Part shown: positions 1 to 61,942 of the stretch, in pieces
Layout of the letters: every line of letters begins with the position of its first letter
How positions within the stretch are numbered: position 1 is the stretch's first letter
Origin: a virus
Virus record (IMG/VR): IMGVR_UViG_3300032326_002451
Location: 1 to 64,000 of that record
DNA: 64,000 nt
Direction: 5' to 3' (one strand)
The notes under the pieces: model-generated
Told to the model about the DNA's origin: nothing
Databases searched by the model: none
Seen by the model: only the letters and a program-made list of their open reading frames with translations
Made by a program: the position numbers and the translations under genes

Positions 1-31
1 ATAATTTATTTTTATCAATAAAAATGCTCAT
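1..31 (-). CDS. Start of a further minus-strand gene (partial)
   Basis: An ATG on the minus strand at 31-29 shares its first base with the TAA stop of the 981-residue gene, giving a TAATG junction. The open frame runs off the window edge after ten codons (begins MSIFIDKN). The same one-base stop/start overlap occurs at 6373, 10821, 25091 and 37184, which supports a real, translationally coupled start. Nothing can be said about function. The neighbours suggest another tail or baseplate gene. Confidence 0.55.
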   Translation of the reverse strand, partial: MSIFIDKNKL

Positions 32-2976
32 TATAATTCGCCTGTAGGTTCTGGATATGGATCATATGACAAACTGTCAACTACTACTGACCAAGATACT
101 GATTTACTTTGTACGCTATCAACAGTTGAATTTGTACTATCTGGAGACCATGTGATCTGTGGCAGTTCTAACTTGAATGGACCAAAGTTGAATAAAATTC
201 CACTTTTGTTAATGTTGCTTGGACCAGCTAATCTCTCTGCTAACAGCCAAGGTTTCATAGGGCTGTTATATTTTATTGTTCCACTTATAGTTCTTCCATC
301 AGAATAGTATGCATATGGTTGAAGATTTTTGTTGAAATTTTCTATTTCATTGCTTGAGTTAGAGTTTAATGAATATATAGCCTGTAAATTATTCTTGATA
401 TCAATTGTCATTTCAGTTATTTCAAAATCTCTCAAATCATATTCTTGATAACCATGGAACAACTTAGAACTCTTTGCGTCTCCTAAGTTGAATGTAAAGT
501 TAGATGTTGAAGATTGTGAATTTGAAACTGTAACCAATGAAGAACTTAATAAGTAATTTGGTTTTCTATTATTCATATTTGACATAATAGTATTGAAATT
601 ATTGAAGAAATTCTTTTGATACTTTCTATCTAAATCTGTAAACTTAACACTAATATTTGCTGTTATATTTTCTCCTGGAACAATCCTCAATGAGATAGAA
701 TCGACTAAACACCCACTAAATAATCCCTCTTTTGAAGAAAATAAGGAAAACGATGGCTCTCTATTTGTTCCTGGGTTTGTAGTACTTGCCCATACATACG
801 AAATAGCTGGAGTGTGTGTATTTACTGTGTTTGAAGAGAATATTATTGTTTTGCTTGCCTTGTTCACACTCAATACAGTCAAAGATTCAGAAGTCTCAGA
901 ATTATCATCACTCTTAATTATTGCAGTATATCCTGTACCTAAGCTTTGAAAATCAGATATATTATCAATTACAAATCTATCTGTAGAACCTATAGATACA
1001 GACATATTATCAGCTAAAATTCTACCTACAAAGTTACTGGTTGAACCCTTATATCCTTGAATACAATAATCATATAATGCTGCAAATACAGGGTCAACAT
1101 CACCCCAAGATTCAACCTTAACTGGCAGAGAAAAATCAAATGAAAATTCTCTTTTATCAACCTTAAATGTATTAGGGCTCGCTCCTTCACCTGCTAATCT
1201 TTTCTCAAAATTCGAGTTTTGCTTATAATTCAAATTCATATTATTTATTGAGAACATGTAATCTGAATTCAATGTTGAAAAAGATAAATCATAATATGGA
1301 TCGTTATTAATATCTCGAGTCAAAGCAACACAATCAAAATATCCCATTTCATAAGAAGGATAATGAATTTGATTAAGGAATGAAAGTGTTCTAACTTCTC
1401 TTTGGAGTTCATGCAATCCAAGATGCTCACCAGAAATAATTGAGTATGGATAAATAAAAGTACCATATTGTATAGTATGAATTCCTAAAATATCCGAAGC
1501 TGTAATTGGATAAGGTCTGATAAATGATTCAGATAATATTCTATGCAGACCAGTAATTTGAACAGTATTAGGAGGATAAGGAATTATAAAAGCTTCAGTT
1601 CTCAAAGTATGAAGACCTGTTTGCTCCTTGCCATCTGCACCATAGGGATAAATAAAAGCTTGAGAATATAATCTGTGATTGTTTAATATTTCTTCAGATA
1701 ATTCAGGATATGGATAAATATATGCTTGGGAATACAAAGTGTGTAATCCCAACATTTCTATAGTTTGTATTGGTCTTGGAATAATATTTGCATTTGACCT
1801 TAATGTTGGTACTGGAAAATTATTATCTTCGGGCAAAATAACTGGAGAATAATTAAATTTATTTTCAACTGTTTGAACAGAATAAGGACTTATATAAGCC
1901 TGTGAGTAAAGAGTATGTCGGCCTAATTTTTCTAATGAAATTATTGATCTATCTTGAAGATTCAACAAAGCTGTAATTCTATTATTGCCAGTAAATTCTA
2001 AACTTCTAATTGAAAAAGGACGTATATTGACATTTCCTGGGTTTAGTCTATGTCTACCAATTAATTCAAATGATGTTTGTGAATAAGGTTGTATTCTTGA
2101 CGAAGTATTAAGTCTCGTACCTGGAGCTGGTATTTGTGAGTTTACTACTTCTGTTGTCTTAACAGAATAAGGTTGAATTTGTGCTGGTTGCGCTGATAAT
2201 CTATGATATCCAGTTTGAAAAAAACCATTAATTGGATATGGAGTAATACTTGGAAGAATGTATGTGATTGTTACTAATACACTATCAAGTCCCCAGTTAA
2301 ATGATTCTTTTGCAGTATTAGAAAGTAAAATTCTTGCTGCAAAACGTATATTTGTTAAGGCATTTTGCCAAGTACTTGGTCGATATACAATATTTTGTAG
2401 AGTAGTTGCTGCGTATAAAGTTGACAAATCATAAACAAAATCAGTAAGTACATCTGGCCAAAATCCAACTTTTTCACCTCTATTTGATGTAGTTCCTCGG
2501 CTTGTTACTGTTGGAAAGACTTGAGCTGTAAAAAAAGCATCATCAATTTGCGCAAAAGTAGTGCCTCCAGTATATGGGCTTCCTTCTCCTGCTTTTCTGA
2601 TTGTGATAGTAACACCAGTAATTGTCCAAGATGAATTTGGTTTTACTGCAAGATTTGATAATATCAAAGTATCAGTAAAAGTGCGCTGAGCCGGATTCGT
2701 AGGAACACTCCAAGTATTTTGAGGTGGATTATAGTTAGCTGAATCTTGATCATAAGCACATCTAAATCCATCATTATTCGCTTGCAAAGAAATTGGATTT
2801 ACGACTATCGCTGGATTATGAGGGGTTGGTCTTGAAGGTATAAGTTCAACCCAGCTCCATAAATTTCCCGCTGGCCAGTTTGTTGTTGGAGAAACAACTT
2901 GTCCTCCTACTGCTGGATACAAAAAAGCATTATTGACACTATTTACAGTTGTAAAATACGTAGTAAGCGTTGGCAT
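31..2976 (-). CDS. Tail-tube-like protein with a 22-residue repeat array
   Basis: 981 residues. The first ~240 residues are beta-rich with no family I recognise. Residues ~252-530 hold about eleven degenerate units of ~22 residues with consensus LGxHxLYSQAYIxPYP; the clearest run from 351 onward. The C-terminal ~430 residues have the look of a phage tail-tube fold: a segment containing GLFSGCLVDSISLRI near 760, then alternating strands ending in a WSVVVDSL-type strand. A GAGG ribosome-binding site lies eight bases before the ATG. It is the last complete gene of the minus-strand structural run, 15 bases after the 821-residue gene. I infer a tail-tube or tail-sheath-associated virion protein whose repeat could form a fibre, collar or decoration. 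The tube assignment rests on overall pattern rather than a diagnostic motif. Confidence 0.45.
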   Translation of the reverse strand: MPTLTTYFTTVNSVNNAFLYPAVGGQVVSPTTNWPAGNLWSWVELIPSRPTPHNPAIVVNPISLQANNDGFRCAYDQDSANYNPPQNTWSVPTNPAQRTFTDTLILSNLAVKPNSSWTITGVTITIRKAGEGSPYTGGTTFAQIDDAFFTAQVFPTVTSRGTTSNRGEKVGFWPDVLTDFVYDLSTLYAATTLQNIVYRPSTWQNALTNIRFAARILLSNTAKESFNWGLDSVLVTITYILPSITPYPINGFFQTGYHRLSAQPAQIQPYSVKTTEVVNSQIPAPGTRLNTSSRIQPYSQTSFELIGRHRLNPGNVNIRPFSIRSLEFTGNNRITALLNLQDRSIISLEKLGRHTLYSQAYISPYSVQTVENKFNYSPVILPEDNNFPVPTLRSNANIIPRPIQTIEMLGLHTLYSQAYIYPYPELSEEILNNHRLYSQAFIYPYGADGKEQTGLHTLRTEAFIIPYPPNTVQITGLHRILSESFIRPYPITASDILGIHTIQYGTFIYPYSIISGEHLGLHELQREVRTLSFLNQIHYPSYEMGYFDCVALTRDINNDPYYDLSFSTLNSDYMFSINNMNLNYKQNSNFEKRLAGEGASPNTFKVDKREFSFDFSLPVKVESWGDVDPVFAALYDYCIQGYKGSTSNFVGRILADNMSVSIGSTDRFVIDNISDFQSLGTGYTAIIKSDDNSETSESLTVLSVNKASKTIIFSSNTVNTHTPAISYVWASTTNPGTNREPSFSLFSSKEGLFSGCLVDSISLRIVPGENITANISVKFTDLDRKYQKNFFNNFNTIMSNMNNRKPNYLLSSSLVTVSNSQSSTSNFTFNLGDAKSSKLFHGYQEYDLRDFEITEMTIDIKNNLQAIYSLNSNSSNEIENFNKNLQPYAYYSDGRTISGTIKYNSPMKPWLLAERLAGPSNINKSGILFNFGPFKLELPQITWSPDSTNSTVDSVQSKSVSWSVVVDSLSYDPYPEPTGEL
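1389..2223 (-). repeat. Array of ~11 degenerate 66-bp / 22-residue repeats inside the tail-tube-like gene
   Basis: In protein the units read LGRHTLYSQAYISPYS, LGLHTLYSQAYIYPYP, NNHRLYSQAFIYPYG, TGLHTLRTEAFIIPYP, TGLHRILSESFIRPYP, LGIHTIQYGTFIYPYS and more divergent relatives upstream. The spacing is 22 residues with occasional indels. The conserved positions are G, H, L/I and the PY pair. A single stray unit (KLGRHQLVN) ends the 304-residue protein at 5459-6373. The repeat is conserved in protein more than in DNA, so it is old or under selection rather than a fresh tandem duplication. Confidence 0.85.
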
Positions 2977-2991
2977 ATTTTATACCTCTGC

Positions 2992-5457
2992 TTACGGAAC
3001 AGTTTCGACTGTTATTAAATCATAAATGTCCCAAAGGATTGGTCCATTTCCTACTCTTGTTACATTGGTTCCTGGGCTTACTACTACATTTGTGACCCTA
3101 TCATACAAATCAGATTCAGCTCCAAGTATAAATCTTGTATCTCTTGCAGTTCCTTTTGGCACAGTTGTAGTCATAGTAACTTCTGTGCCACCTGTTCCAT
3201 ATTTAGCTGTTACAGATACAAACAACTCATTTTTTATAGTTTTATCTGTAGTGCTGGCTATTGCTACTGAAGATCCATTAAATATCAATCCTGTATCATC
3301 GACAATATCATCTACCGGAGGCACATATACAGATAATCTTCTTGGAATATTAGCTATTCTGTTAGTAAACTTAATGCCTCTTCTAAAAGATTCACCAATA
3401 GTATTCCCGTCATCAAGAAAGCCCCTCATTTGAAAATATGCACTTCCTCCAGTGCTTGACCAGACACTTGAGCCATCAAAGTCAGTAGCTAAAGTTTTTA
3501 TTTGATTCGAACCAGAATTCAATATTCTTGTTCTTAGGTCTGTTGTGCCAAGCCCAGTTGAAAAATCTATTGGTTTATTTATGACAAGCCAGTAGCTTGT
3601 GTTAGCATCCAAATTAACACCTGGTGTAAATTTAATAGTATAGTTAGCACTTCCTTCTAAAATATCTACATAGGGTAAAATTGGTTGATCAGAAAGTTGG
3701 TTATTATAATCTGGTGAGCCACTTAGATTTTGGTATAAAGCAAAATTCAATCCAGTAGATCCTGTGGATGCAACTTGATTAGGAGCATTAAAACCTAACT
3801 TGATTGTCAATCCTCCAATGAAACAATCTTCGTTCGTTGTAATTTTGAATGCTGTATTTTTACTTAAATTTAGAAAACTATTATCAGTAACTGGAGTCAC
3901 TGTAAAATATGGTGGATTTTGAATGTCATCAACAAGTGTCAATCTTTTTTCTATAGACTCTGTTGATAAACTTGGTCTTTTATATACGTGATAAAACAGC
4001 GCATTGGTAGTTCCTAAGCCTTGCCAATTAAGTTCGACCATGTAATTTGAATTTGTTGTGTTGGTTGATATCTTGCTTACGTATGTTGGAACTGTTTCAA
4101 CATATGAAGTACCTGCGATTGATGAAACAGCAGTAACTCCATATATTTGTGTACCAGGAACTAAAGAAGATAAACTTGCTTGTGAAGAGATTACTGTTCC
4201 AGTCAATTCCGAAGTACCAATTCCAGAAGTACCTAATACTGCTGAATTATATGAAACTAAATCTCCCCTAAAAATTGCAAACGTATGTTGCAAATCTAAA
4301 GCTGTTCTATTGTAATATGCAGTTGTAAAGTTTTTTGGGAATTCGAATCTTTCAAGACCACTAAAAGAAACTCCTTTAGAATAATATTGAGTTGGTCTAA
4401 ATGGTTGTAATGCCCAAAATTGATTAGAATTCAAGGTTGAGCCTTGAATAAGCTCAGAAGAATATGCTCTTATAGCGTCAACAAAATTGTTAATTACTAT
4501 GTCATTGCGATAAGTATTAAGATTTGATATTGCAGCATTACAAGCGTTGACTACATCTTGGACATCATCTGTATTTCCTAAAATTAAGTTGCTTGAAGTT
4601 GCAGTTGGTATATCGTTTGCATTTCGCACATATGCATTGTAAGTGTTACCAGCAACTCTTGGGTCTTCTGGATTTTTTATCAAAACTTGCGCAACTGGTA
4701 ACCAATTTGATGGAAGAGGTGGATAGTAATTAAAAGCTAATGGATCTTCACTGTTTGTTTCAACAGGAAATCCAGTCAAATACTTTAGTTTAGGCTGAAA
4801 TACAAACTTGACTGGAGTATCAACACTTACATTTGAAGAAAGCACTCCATAGCTTGATCCATTGTAAAAATTTGGGTCAATTATAAGACCATTATTTAAT
4901 GTATTTATTCCACTAAATTTCAAATACAATGAACCAACATGAGCTTCTAATGGAAAACCTAAACTAAGGGCTGTTTCAGTACTTGTTACATATAATATGT
5001 TTGAGCCTGATGTTGAAGCTGTACTAACAGTTGTATTGAAAGTTTGAATTGCTTTTTGAGCTTCTAAAATTGGGAATCCAACTGTTATGCCATATTTATG
5101 TGCAGTAGATCCTGAGCCTACTAAATTGTAATCTTTTAAAAATTCTTTTTTAATAGGTATCTTTTGTTGGACAAGCTGAATAAGAGAACCATTATAAGAA
5201 ACAGTACCTGAGCCAAAAATCACATTGTATTGATCAGAAGAAAAATTATATGAAGGCAAAAAACTCAATGGATCAGTTTCAACTATTCCAAAATAAGGAT
5301 ATCCAGTCTGAGCAGTTGTGAGCAAATTGTTTATTTCAAAAATAGCTGAAGACGGGGTATCAATGTCTCCCACTCCAAGAGTCATAGCATCAGAAATATT
5401 TCCAGCATTTTTTGCTATTTCTAAAATTACTTCTTCTATTTTTGATGATATCGCCAT
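2992..5457 (-). CDS. Large virion structural protein, baseplate/tail candidate
   Basis: 821 residues with no signal peptide or membrane segment. The N-terminal ~30 residues are helical (begins MAISSKIEEVILEIAKNAGN); the rest is Gly/Ser/Thr/Asn-rich beta structure. Residues ~526-660 resemble a beta-sandwich module that recurs in three other proteins here, ending in a YWLVINKP-like strand. The last ~100 residues form another beta domain. The gene begins one base after the stop of the 304-residue gene with no clear Shine-Dalgarno, so it is probably translated by coupling. The long ORF antisense to its 3' end (3026-3433) is a shadow. The family is not recognised. A baseplate or tail-fibre role is inferred from the neighbourhood. 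Confidence 0.6.
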   Translation of the reverse strand: MAISSKIEEVILEIAKNAGNISDAMTLGVGDIDTPSSAIFEINNLLTTAQTGYPYFGIVETDPLSFLPSYNFSSDQYNVIFGSGTVSYNGSLIQLVQQKIPIKKEFLKDYNLVGSGSTAHKYGITVGFPILEAQKAIQTFNTTVSTASTSGSNILYVTSTETALSLGFPLEAHVGSLYLKFSGINTLNNGLIIDPNFYNGSSYGVLSSNVSVDTPVKFVFQPKLKYLTGFPVETNSEDPLAFNYYPPLPSNWLPVAQVLIKNPEDPRVAGNTYNAYVRNANDIPTATSSNLILGNTDDVQDVVNACNAAISNLNTYRNDIVINNFVDAIRAYSSELIQGSTLNSNQFWALQPFRPTQYYSKGVSFSGLERFEFPKNFTTAYYNRTALDLQHTFAIFRGDLVSYNSAVLGTSGIGTSELTGTVISSQASLSSLVPGTQIYGVTAVSSIAGTSYVETVPTYVSKISTNTTNSNYMVELNWQGLGTTNALFYHVYKRPSLSTESIEKRLTLVDDIQNPPYFTVTPVTDNSFLNLSKNTAFKITTNEDCFIGGLTIKLGFNAPNQVASTGSTGLNFALYQNLSGSPDYNNQLSDQPILPYVDILEGSANYTIKFTPGVNLDANTSYWLVINKPIDFSTGLGTTDLRTRILNSGSNQIKTLATDFDGSSVWSSTGGSAYFQMRGFLDDGNTIGESFRRGIKFTNRIANIPRRLSVYVPPVDDIVDDTGLIFNGSSVAIASTTDKTIKNELFVSVTAKYGTGGTEVTMTTTVPKGTARDTRFILGAESDLYDRVTNVVVSPGTNVTRVGNGPILWDIYDLITVETVP

Positions 5458-5458
5458 T

Positions 5459-6373
5459 TTAATTTACCAGTTGATGTCTGCCCAATTTTTGTTGTGTCAA
5501 TATTCCAGTTGGTTGAAATTGAAATACGACATTTATGCCTAACTCATTATCAATAAAATCTCTGAGTTCCTTTGGCAATTGAGGATCTGCTGTTTCCCAA
5601 TAAGTTTGAAAATCAGGATCCCAACCATCCAAATCAATCCACTTTTGAACTAATTTCTTGATATTTTCAAGCAAATCAGATTCTAAATTGTTAATGTCTT
5701 GTTTTGATTGAATAATTTTTGGAGCTACTTTGGTATACAAAATTTCTTCTGGTAAGCCATAGTAGCCTCTTGGTTTTCGTTCATCTCGCACAAAAATAAA
5801 AACTCTATCTTTTTTATACTCGTTATAATACTTTTCAACATCTAAGATAAACTTAAAAAGCAACACACTTGAACTTGAATTTCCTGTTGGATAAGGAAAT
5901 TCTATATCAGTGCTGTATTTTAATACATCTTCAATTTCTGAAAAAACAATATCTTTTGAAAATATACAAGTTTCGCTGTTAGGTATTTTTTTAGATTTAC
6001 AAAGTGAAAATTCGATTTGGTTATTTTCTGTAAGCCATGCGCATCCCAAAACATAACAATCTGAAATATCATTTAGATTTCCTAAAATATCAGATGCTGA
6101 AAAACCAAATTGATTATCGTCATTGTTTGGCAACTCAGATCTTACATTAGAGTTATAAATCAAACCTTTGCCCAAAACCAAAATGTTTTTCATCATTTCA
6201 GGTCTTGAAGGATCTAAATATGACAATCCATAGTTCAACTTTAATGAATCGTTATTATTGATTGAAAGACAATATTCAAGAATAGACTGAGAATATTCTG
6301 TAGAGGATAATGAAATATTATATGATTTAATTAAGTTGTTCAAAATCACCGCTGAAGCATAATTAGGAATCAT
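5459..6373 (-). CDS. Conserved-looking tail/baseplate-region protein carrying a stray repeat unit
   Basis: 304 residues, mixed alpha/beta, not recognised. It is less Ser/Thr/Gly-rich than its neighbours and contains a compact middle part (FIFVRDERKPRGYYGLPEE near residue 200) followed by a helical, acidic stretch. The protein ends in KLGRHQLVN, which matches the start of the 22-residue repeat of the 981-residue protein two genes downstream. The ATG overlaps the stop of the preceding gene by one base and has a good AAGGAG site eight bases upstream. By size and position it could be an adaptor joining the two large neighbours. That is a guess from context. Confidence 0.5.
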   Translation of the reverse strand: MIPNYASAVILNNLIKSYNISLSSTEYSQSILEYCLSINNNDSLKLNYGLSYLDPSRPEMMKNILVLGKGLIYNSNVRSELPNNDDNQFGFSASDILGNLNDISDCYVLGCAWLTENNQIEFSLCKSKKIPNSETCIFSKDIVFSEIEDVLKYSTDIEFPYPTGNSSSSVLLFKFILDVEKYYNEYKKDRVFIFVRDERKPRGYYGLPEEILYTKVAPKIIQSKQDINNLESDLLENIKKLVQKWIDLDGWDPDFQTYWETADPQLPKELRDFIDNELGINVVFQFQPTGILTQQKLGRHQLVN

Positions 6374-13914: not shown

Positions 13915-13920
13915 TCTATA
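13915..13920 (-). promoter_or_regulatory. Possible -10 box for the minus-strand run starting at 13865
   Basis: TATAGA on the minus strand, directly downstream of the AT-rich block. It would give a leader of roughly 43 bases that includes the GGAG site. No clear -35 is seen in the AT-rich DNA, which might act as an UP element instead. This is a weak call. Confidence 0.3.
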
Positions 13921-14005
13921 ATTACTAATTAAATTGTTAATTTAAATTGATTAATTAAATTACTAATTTTAATTTATATATAATTAATTAATTTAAATTA
14001 AATTG
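13915..14005. other. Extremely AT-rich intergenic block with ATTAATTAA-type repeats
   Basis: Only a handful of G or C bases occur across 13921-14003. The block is built from overlapping AATTAATT and TTTAAATT words, and the word ATTACTAATT appears twice (near 13921 and 13960). It separates the 369-residue gene from the small-protein gene on the minus strand. It could be an UP element for a strong minus-strand promoter, a DNA-unwinding element of a replication origin, or a protein-binding array. No gene is visible in it. Confidence 0.6.
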
Positions 14006-60229: not shown

Positions 60230-61942
60230 ATGAGTATTGCAGTAGGAATAGATTTAGGTAGTACATTTAGCGTAGTTTCTTATGTAAAAGCAGATGGAAG
60301 TATTGAGGTAATTCCTAATTCAGAAGGAAACCGCATTACACCATCTGTTTTTGCAATTGATGACCAGTCGCAAATTATGATTGGCGATTTGGCTTCAGAA
60401 TACGAATTAGTTTATCCGGAAAGAGTTGTTAGATTAGTCAAGAGAAACATGTCTGATGGCATGAATAAAATTTATAATTTTGACAATTTTGTTAATTCAA
60501 TAAAATTATCTCCTTGCGAAATATCTTCTGAAATATTAAAGAAACTTAAAAAAGATACAGAAGATTATTTAGGAGAAGAAATTAAAGAAGCTGTGATTAC
60601 AGTGCCAGCTTATTTTAATAACAGTGAAAGAGAAGCAACAAAAGCCGCTGGAGAATTGGCAGGGCTGAAAGTTCTAAGAATTATCAATGAGCCTACTGCA
60701 GCATCTTTAGCTTATGGTCTTGATAAGAACAATGATTCGACAATCTTGGTATACGACCTTGGCGGGGGTACTTTTGATGTTACTGTACTTAAGCTATCTG
60801 ATGGTTGTGATTTTCATGTCCTATCAACTTCAGGAGACACAAAACTTGGAGGAGCAGATTTCGATTCTGCTTTAGGAATTATTATTCAAAATAAATTTGG
60901 CTTTCATATTGAATCTTCCGAATTGAGATCTTTAGCTGAAAAAACCAAAAAAATGCTATCACAATTACAAATAGCAAATGTTCGATACGCAGGACAGCAA
61001 GTTTCAATAAATAGAGAAGAATTTGAACAATCAATTGATAGTTTGATTATGGAAACTAAACATTGTATAGATCAAGCCTTGTCTGATGCAAATTTGAGCA
61101 TAAATGATATAGATGAGGTGGTTTTTGTAGGTGGATCAACAAGAATCCCATACGTTGCTCAAAAAGTGCAAGAATGGCTAAATAAAAGGCCAAATAAGTC
61201 AATCAATCCAGATGAAGCTGTTTCCGTGGGTGCAGCAATTCAAGCTTCTGTTCTTTCGGGTAATTCAAAAAAAGAAGTTTATTTGTTAGATGTCACTCCA
61301 TTATCATTAGGAATTGAAACTCAAGGTGGTTTCATGACAACTATGATCAAGAGAAACACACAAGTGCCTACAGAATTTAAAGAGACTTTTACTACAGCTA
61401 CTGATAACCAAACAGAAGTAGATGTCAAGGTCTTTCAGGGCGAAAGACCAAGAGTAATTAATAATCATTTTTTGGGAGAGTTTAATTTAGAAAATATTAA
61501 TGCAGCACCTCGTGGAATTCCAAAGATTGATGTTGTTTTTGAGGTTGATGCTAACGGTATTGTGTTTGTCAAAGCAATTGATGAAAACACAAAAGAAGAA
61601 AAATCTATGGTTTTGTCTGGAGCAAGTAGTCTATCAAGCTTAGATGTTAATAAAATGCTTCAAGATGCAGAAGATAATAAAGCCAAGGATGAAAGAGACA
61701 GAACCATAAAGAAGTTGACAGATTATCTCATAGATTGTAAAATTCAAATAACTCATCTTCTGAAGTCTGATATTTTGAATAAATCAGAAATCAATGAACT
61801 GATTGACTTAAAAAAATCTATTGACAATGATATAAATTCTGAAAATGTAGAATTTTTATCTTCTTTGTCAGAGTCAGCTAAAGATTTGTTAGAAGTTTTA
61901 TCTGATAAAGTTCATGAAGAAGCAAGTAAATTATTATTATGA
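60230..61942 (+). CDS. dnaK: DnaK/Hsp70 chaperone
   Basis: 570 residues. The nucleotide-binding domain shows GIDLGSTFSVVSY (phosphate 1), K71 in LVKRNM, a connect-1 segment with VPAYFNNSEREATKAAGE, YDLGGGTFDVTVL (phosphate 2), T204 in GDTKLGGADFD and VFVGGSTRIP (adenosine motif). The interdomain linker LLDVTPLSLGIET is intact, followed by the substrate-binding beta domain and a shortened helical lid. It is shorter than typical bacterial DnaK (~640) through a reduced lobe II and no C-terminal disordered tail. All residues needed for ATP-driven cycling appear present. The DnaJ at 56067 is the likely partner. The next gene overlaps by four bases. Confidence 0.95.
   Translation: MSIAVGIDLGSTFSVVSYVKADGSIEVIPNSEGNRITPSVFAIDDQSQIMIGDLASEYELVYPERVVRLVKRNMSDGMNKIYNFDNFVNSIKLSPCEISSEILKKLKKDTEDYLGEEIKEAVITVPAYFNNSEREATKAAGELAGLKVLRIINEPTAASLAYGLDKNNDSTILVYDLGGGTFDVTVLKLSDGCDFHVLSTSGDTKLGGADFDSALGIIIQNKFGFHIESSELRSLAEKTKKMLSQLQIANVRYAGQQVSINREEFEQSIDSLIMETKHCIDQALSDANLSINDIDEVVFVGGSTRIPYVAQKVQEWLNKRPNKSINPDEAVSVGAAIQASVLSGNSKKEVYLLDVTPLSLGIETQGGFMTTMIKRNTQVPTEFKETFTTATDNQTEVDVKVFQGERPRVINNHFLGEFNLENINAAPRGIPKIDVVFEVDANGIVFVKAIDENTKEEKSMVLSGASSLSSLDVNKMLQDAEDNKAKDERDRTIKKLTDYLIDCKIQITHLLKSDILNKSEINELIDLKKSIDNDINSENVEFLSSLSESAKDLLEVLSDKVHEEASKLLL

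What the first reader, a model, noticed from the sequence alone, without database searches (positions are those of the whole stretch)
1389..6373. 22-residue LGxHxLYSQAYIxPYP repeat fused to a tail-tube-like domain, with a stray copy two genes away
About eleven units sit in the 981-residue protein and one half-unit ends the 304-residue protein. I know of no named repeat with this consensus. The conserved His, Tyr-Pro and Gly positions suggest a short hairpin or beta-solenoid rung. The stray copy may be a docking tag that joins the array by strand complementation.
Basis: seen in the sequence. Interest (0 to 1): 0.6.

Follow-up and report, generated by a model that had tools for sequence, protein, structure and literature searches.

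The report
Widespread unnamed phage tail-protein repeat
The odd 22-residue repeat is real and is one branch of a large, unnamed repeat family in the tail proteins of many phages; single copies at the end of separate neighbouring tail proteins recur in unrelated phages, which suggests a shared assembly contact.

Summary
p981 (window 31-2976, minus) has about 12 units (1390-2247), and p304 (5459-6373, minus) ends in one unit (5468-5518). The consensus is not new. It is a divergent branch of a repeat (I-x-P-x-G-I-x-S-x-E-x-F-G-x-x-x-L, 20-24 residues) in mycobacteriophage minor tail proteins (phrog_13352, E = 2e-56) and in about 49 other IMG/VR viral loci. Pfam and the open literature searched have no name for it. 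AlphaFold gives a repetitive two-to-three-strand pattern per unit at low-to-moderate confidence; a beta-solenoid-like arm is the best reading. The stray unit survives in both relatives found, so the proposed refutation failed. In one relative, however, the neighbouring array has largely decayed while the stray unit persists. Independently, a different small protein beside the array gene ends in one unit in 5 of 5 contig lineages. A terminal unit on a separate protein is therefore a recurrent arrangement. Docking is plausible but unproven; strand complementation was not tested. The tail-tube reading of p981's C-terminus is weakly supported.

The parts
31..2976 (-). 981-residue tail protein: N-terminal domain, repeat array, C-terminal tail-tube-like region
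   Evidence: orthologues of 966 aa (L012, 68% identical) and 952 aa (L030)
2248..2976 (-). N-terminal domain of p981 (residues 1-243), predicted by eye to be a beta-sandwich
   Evidence: related to the N-terminus of the L030 orthologue through r966 (E=2e-9); that orthologue's N-terminus also matches the N-terminus of a classical SxEAFG array protein, L066 (E=1e-5)
1390..2247 (-). array of 12 repeat units (residues 244-529)
   Evidence: A2 alignment
31..1389 (-). C-terminal region of p981, tail-tube-like
   Evidence: Pfam Phage_tube_2 E=0.003, 17.6 bits (cut-off 27) for this region, E=0.0014 for the L030 orthologue; below the curated cut-off, so suggestive only
2992..5457 (-). 821-residue protein between the two repeat-bearing genes; no repeat units found
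   Evidence: 87% identical in L012; no significant family hit
5459..6373 (-). 304-residue protein carrying the stray C-terminal unit
   Evidence: orthologues at 75% (L012) and in L030
5468..5518 (-). single C-terminal repeat unit FQPTGILTQQKLGRHQL
   Evidence: 10.8 bits, best non-array hit in the genome; shuffle maximum 10.1 over 20 proteomes; kept in both relatives found

Best explanation
The repeat is a divergent member of an unnamed phage tail-repeat family whose common core is I-x-P-x-[GSA]-I-x-S-x-E-x-[FL]-G-x-x-x-[LV] with a period of 20-24 residues (shown by profile similarity and an in-register alignment). Tandem units most likely stack as coils of a beta-solenoid-like rod, making an elongated arm on tail proteins (inferred; low-to-moderate confidence model). 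In this phage group two tail proteins carry arrays: p981, between an N-terminal domain and a tube-like region, and p2570, with about 75 units, two inserted lectin-like domains and an N-terminal domain related to that of a classical array protein. Single units at the extreme C-terminus of a separate protein (p304 here; an unrelated small protein in other phages) most likely act as an attachment or capping coil that joins that protein to an array during tail assembly (inferred; the recurrence and terminal position are shown, the contact is not).
For: Family: phrog_8501 (minor tail protein) hits p2570 at E=1e-8; phrog_13352, the mycobacteriophage minor tail protein with the SAEAFG repeats, hits the p2570 orthologue at E=2e-56 with six stretches; profile-profile P=5e-7 against 0.81 for the reversed control; a two-unit DNA pattern built from the motif retrieved about 49 other viral loci, all with tandem SxE-[F/L]G arrays; one 28-row alignment keeps E and G in register across both branches. 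Structure: repeated short strands per 22 residues in two AlphaFold runs; weak structural neighbours are largely beta-helix proteins. Stray unit: kept in 3 of 3 contigs of this group; five lineages of an unrelated small protein beside the array gene all end in one unit, 51% identical in the unit against 37% in the body. Two of those lineages were found by similarity to the family alignment (patterns from the body) and then proved to have both the unit and an adjacent array. No single-unit protein had the unit internally.
Against: AlphaFold confidence is only 65-67 and no structural match is significant. In L030 the p981 orthologue retains only two weakly recognisable units while its stray unit is intact, so the tag does not track that array. 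No p2570 homologue was seen in the 119,812-base L030 record, which may be a fragment. The stray unit alone is only slightly above the shuffle maximum. Most array loci show no detectable single-unit partner, though many are truncated. No complex could be modelled.
Confidence: 0.55

Rival explanations
1. The stray unit has no docking role: it is a terminal beta segment that p304 and the other small proteins acquired by recombination from a common repeat pool and kept for their own folding or stability.
For: In L030 the stray unit is intact although the neighbouring array is largely decayed; the stray unit there resembles the classical SxEAFG form rather than its neighbour array.
Against: Two unrelated protein families place it at the very C-terminus beside array genes, and in one of them it is more conserved than the body.
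Confidence: 0.35
2. Each unit is a linear binding motif for a third tail protein, and the array is a multivalent scaffold. The adjacent phrog_644-type protein is the candidate partner.
For: A phrog_644-type gene lies on the same strand, mostly within about 1 kb, in 40 of 58 array loci, including beside p2570.
Against: phrog_644 genes are common without any array: 8 of 8 sampled phages with the gene had none nearby, so the gene is a general tail-locus neighbour.
Confidence: 0.12
3. The repeats form a trimeric fibre shaft such as a triple beta-spiral, not a single-chain solenoid (a rival for the fold only; it does not exclude the family assignment or docking).
For: Alternating hydrophobic positions, a conserved Gly and a Pro fit a beta-spiral repeat in general terms; phage fibres are often trimers (general knowledge).
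Against: Single-chain AlphaFold predictions give regularly spaced short strands, but a trimer could not be modelled, so this is weak.
Confidence: 0.25
4. The conserved S-x-E is a maturation-protease cleavage site of the kind reported for phiKZ-like head proteins, so single terminal copies are cleavage signals.
For: S-x-E is conserved in most units; the phiKZ precedent is recalled, not tested.
Against: Some 75 sites in p2570 would shred it; Ser and Glu are embedded in a longer conserved unit; units lie in tail, not head, proteins.
Confidence: 0.02

Closest known systems
SxEAFG repeats of mycobacteriophage minor tail proteins (phrog_13352, phrog_8501; Cosmo gp45, Kumao gp32, Marvin gp88)
   Same: same unit core and spacing; tail proteins; phrog_644-type gene next door, as beside p2570
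   Different: window branch has L-G-x-H-x-L and P-Y-S-I instead of A-F-G-x-P-x-L and P-T-G-I; arrays up to about 75 units instead of about 5; the mycobacteriophage arrays read here sit at the N-terminus
IMG/VR SxEAFG arrays (for example L045, L061, L066, L075)
   Same: same repeat; long arrays (more than 70 units in L061); L045, L046 and L061 have E-A-F-G-S-H-Q-L, so the His is shared; L066 has an N-terminal domain similar to that of p2570 and of the L030 p981 orthologue
   Different: unrelated phages; no tube-like C-terminal domain was looked for or seen in them
Phage tail tube protein (Pfam PF18906 Phage_tube_2; p318 at contig 64014-64970 is a member)
   Same: p981 C-terminal region matches weakly
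   Different: match is below Pfam's cut-off and p981 carries an N-terminal domain and array
Beta-helix adhesin and pectinase folds (PDB 3ljy, 3lyc)
   Same: repeated short strands resemble the AlphaFold model in kind
   Different: no significant match (E>=1, TM<=0.42) and no sequence relation

Membership tests
SxEAFG phage tail repeat (phrog_13352 / phrog_8501 type) | sequence core I-x-P-x-G-I-x-S-x-E-x-F-G with 20-24 residue period | tested here: met
   phrog_13352 E=2e-56 on the p2570 orthologue, phrog_8501 E=1e-8 on p2570; hhalign P=5e-7, reversed 0.81; in-register alignment
SxEAFG phage tail repeat (phrog_13352 / phrog_8501 type) | present in tail proteins near tail genes | tested here: met
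   p2570 lies next to a Phage_tube_2 tail tube protein and a phrog_644 gene
SxEAFG phage tail repeat (phrog_13352 / phrog_8501 type) | p981 itself hits the family profile | tested here: inconclusive
   p981 alone gives no PHROG hit; it joins through p2570 and weakly by the general profile (up to 8.5 bits)
Phage_tube_2 tail tube (p981 C-terminal region) | reaches Pfam gathering score | tested here: not met
   17.6 bits against 27; the L030 orthologue 18.8
Beta-solenoid | stacked beta coils in a confident or solved structure | tested here: inconclusive
   pLDDT 65-67, pTM 0.61, no significant fold match
Trimeric beta-spiral fibre | trimeric assembly of interleaved chains | not testable with these tools
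   no complex prediction available
Strand-complementation or docking pair | tag and array bind each other | not testable with these tools
   only comparative evidence

The most novel reading that the evidence does not exclude
A general, undescribed assembly code in phage tails: tail proteins carry arrays of a shared beta repeat, and separate tail proteins carry one matching unit at their C-terminus that adds on as a terminal coil, so that the array acts as a modular socket reused across unrelated phages.
Probability: 0.3. Interest if true: 0.75.

Novelty: new variant of a known kind. Interest (0 to 1): 0.5.

Why it matters
A repeat found in many phages, including cultured mycobacteriophages, has no Pfam model and no paper in the library searched, so it goes unannotated. 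If terminal single units dock on arrays, this would be a simple interchangeable way to attach proteins to phage tails and could be tested in cultured phages.

Tried and rejected
tblastn of the full array proteins against cultured phages found nothing at default thresholds, so shorter queries and profiles were used. Single-unit profiles of the two branches do not find each other reliably; multi-unit profiles do. A first internal alignment with overlapping windows lost register and was replaced. A Thermus phage phiLo hit shows no repeats in its protein and was dropped. Another protein with LGFHRL near its C-terminus (contig 78826-79488) is an unrelated helix by eye. A Microcystis phage protein with similar motifs (P0006) hits phrog_13352 but not the local profile comparison, so it was left out of the argument. 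A three-unit (67-residue) super-period in spacing is clear in the first p2570 array (p=0.0002) but not in the others, and it is shared by descent with the relative; not used. A phrog_644 partner was considered and demoted because the gene is common without arrays. p304, p821 and p1482 have no significant family hit.

Full report
Observation. The window is the first 64 kb of a 110,315-base virus record. p981 (31-2976, minus) carries 12 units between residues 244 and 529 (window 1390-2247); ten are 22-23 residues long and two have insertions. p304 (5459-6373, minus) ends FQPTGILTQQKLGRHQLVN. Aligned in the I-x-P register this is a 17-residue unit, not a half unit. Across all reading frames of the genome it is the best place outside the arrays (10.8 bits; best of 20 shuffled proteomes 10.1).

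A larger array outside the window. Searching the same record with p981 found a 2570-residue protein at contig 65272-72984 (minus) with about 75 units, two copies of an inserted lectin-like domain, and a Phage_tube_2 tail tube protein two genes away. Unit lengths and order are conserved in a relative's 2708-residue orthologue. Position-matched units are 54-57% identical against 38-46% for others, and the position-matched unit is the best match for about half of them, so the array is old and mostly inherited unit by unit.

What the repeat is. Pfam has no model for it. PHROG phrog_8501 (minor tail protein) matches p2570 at E=1e-8. From memory I recalled SAEAFG repeats in mycobacteriophages; this lead was tested. 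Ninety-eight cultured phage records hold such repeats. phrog_13352, whose members Cosmo gp45, Kumao gp32 and Marvin gp88 have SAEAFG units at their N-termini, hits the p2570 orthologue at E=2e-56 in six stretches. Profile-profile comparison gives P=5e-7, and 0.81 for the reversed control. A DNA pattern for two tandem units with only I, P, I, E and G fixed was scanned over 2.9 million viral contigs: besides the known relative, the retrieved loci all carry tandem SxE-[F/L]G units, up to more than 70. In 84,980 prokaryote genomes the same pattern hit one 7-kb contig whose array is nearly identical to a viral one. A 28-row alignment of both branches stays in register. Some classical arrays read EAFGSHQLN (L045, L046, L061), so the G-x-H-x-L of the window branch is shared too. 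The N-terminal domain of p2570 and of the L030 p981 orthologue also matches that of a classical array protein (L066, E=1e-4 and 1e-5). I conclude homology; the window branch is a variant. A full-text search for SAEAFG listed one unrelated paper.

Fold. Two AlphaFold runs on eight units with 13 and 28 rows gave the same pattern of two to three short strands per unit, mean pLDDT 65 and 67, pTM 0.61. Foldseek found nothing significant; weak PDB neighbours are largely beta-helix proteins. A beta-solenoid-like arm is the best reading but is not shown. A trimeric fibre could not be tested.

The stray unit. Two relatives have the p981 and p304 genes. L012 (315,852-base contig): p304 orthologue ends FQLKSVVSQQTLGRHRLVN. 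L030 (119,812-base contig): its orthologue ends IESTGIATKQVFGTARLDSI, a classical unit. However, in L030 the p981 orthologue shows only two weakly recognisable units, so the tag does not follow that array. Independently, scanning array loci for single units in other proteins showed every clear case near the C-terminus. Five contig lineages of one small protein (30-54% identical), with no detected relation to p304, end in one unit beside an array gene; two of these were found by similarity to the family alignment. The unit is more conserved than the body (51% against 37%). The five are homologous, so they are one origin, not five. This makes a role in joining proteins to arrays the best single explanation, at moderate confidence; strand complementation remains a guess.

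Neighbours. A phrog_644-type gene lies near 40 of 58 arrays, including p2570, but also in many phages without arrays (8 of 8 sampled). It marks the tail locus and is at most a candidate partner. The tail-tube reading of p981's C-terminal region rests on Phage_tube_2 at E=0.003 and 0.0014 in an orthologue, both below the curated cut-off.

Verdict.

Noticed in passing
contig 80034-85892 (L010:3034-8892, minus): A 1952-residue protein holds many copies of another repeat around I-L-V-K-N-Q-T-T-x-x-Q-N-G-I-Y; no Pfam hit.
   Followed up: no
contig 65272-72984, C-terminal end of p2570: After the array come three copies of a short K-x-Q-T-I-E-x-[DE]-[IL] motif (QTIESEI, QTIEVDI, QTIEVDL), a different repeat at the extreme C-terminus.
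   Followed up: no
p2570 residues about 353-560 and 1266-1490: Two nearly identical lectin-like domains (starting FRNRFYDxLD) interrupt the array; the relative has the same two insertions.
   Followed up: partly
L017 (relative), residues about 245-380 of the 2708-residue protein: A run of 20-residue units at the start of the array, absent from p2570, looks like a lineage-specific expansion.
   Followed up: no
p2570 residues 650-1190: Unit lengths follow 22-22-23 in groups of three (p=0.0002), conserved in the relative but not seen in later arrays.
   Followed up: partly
window 13920-14000: AT-rich tandem repeat (period 13/26) between genes, the strongest DNA-level tandem repeat in the window.
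   Followed up: no
contig 60230-61942 and 74106-76622: The phage encodes an Hsp70-like chaperone and a DNA gyrase A-like protein flanking the tail genes (by eye).
   Followed up: no
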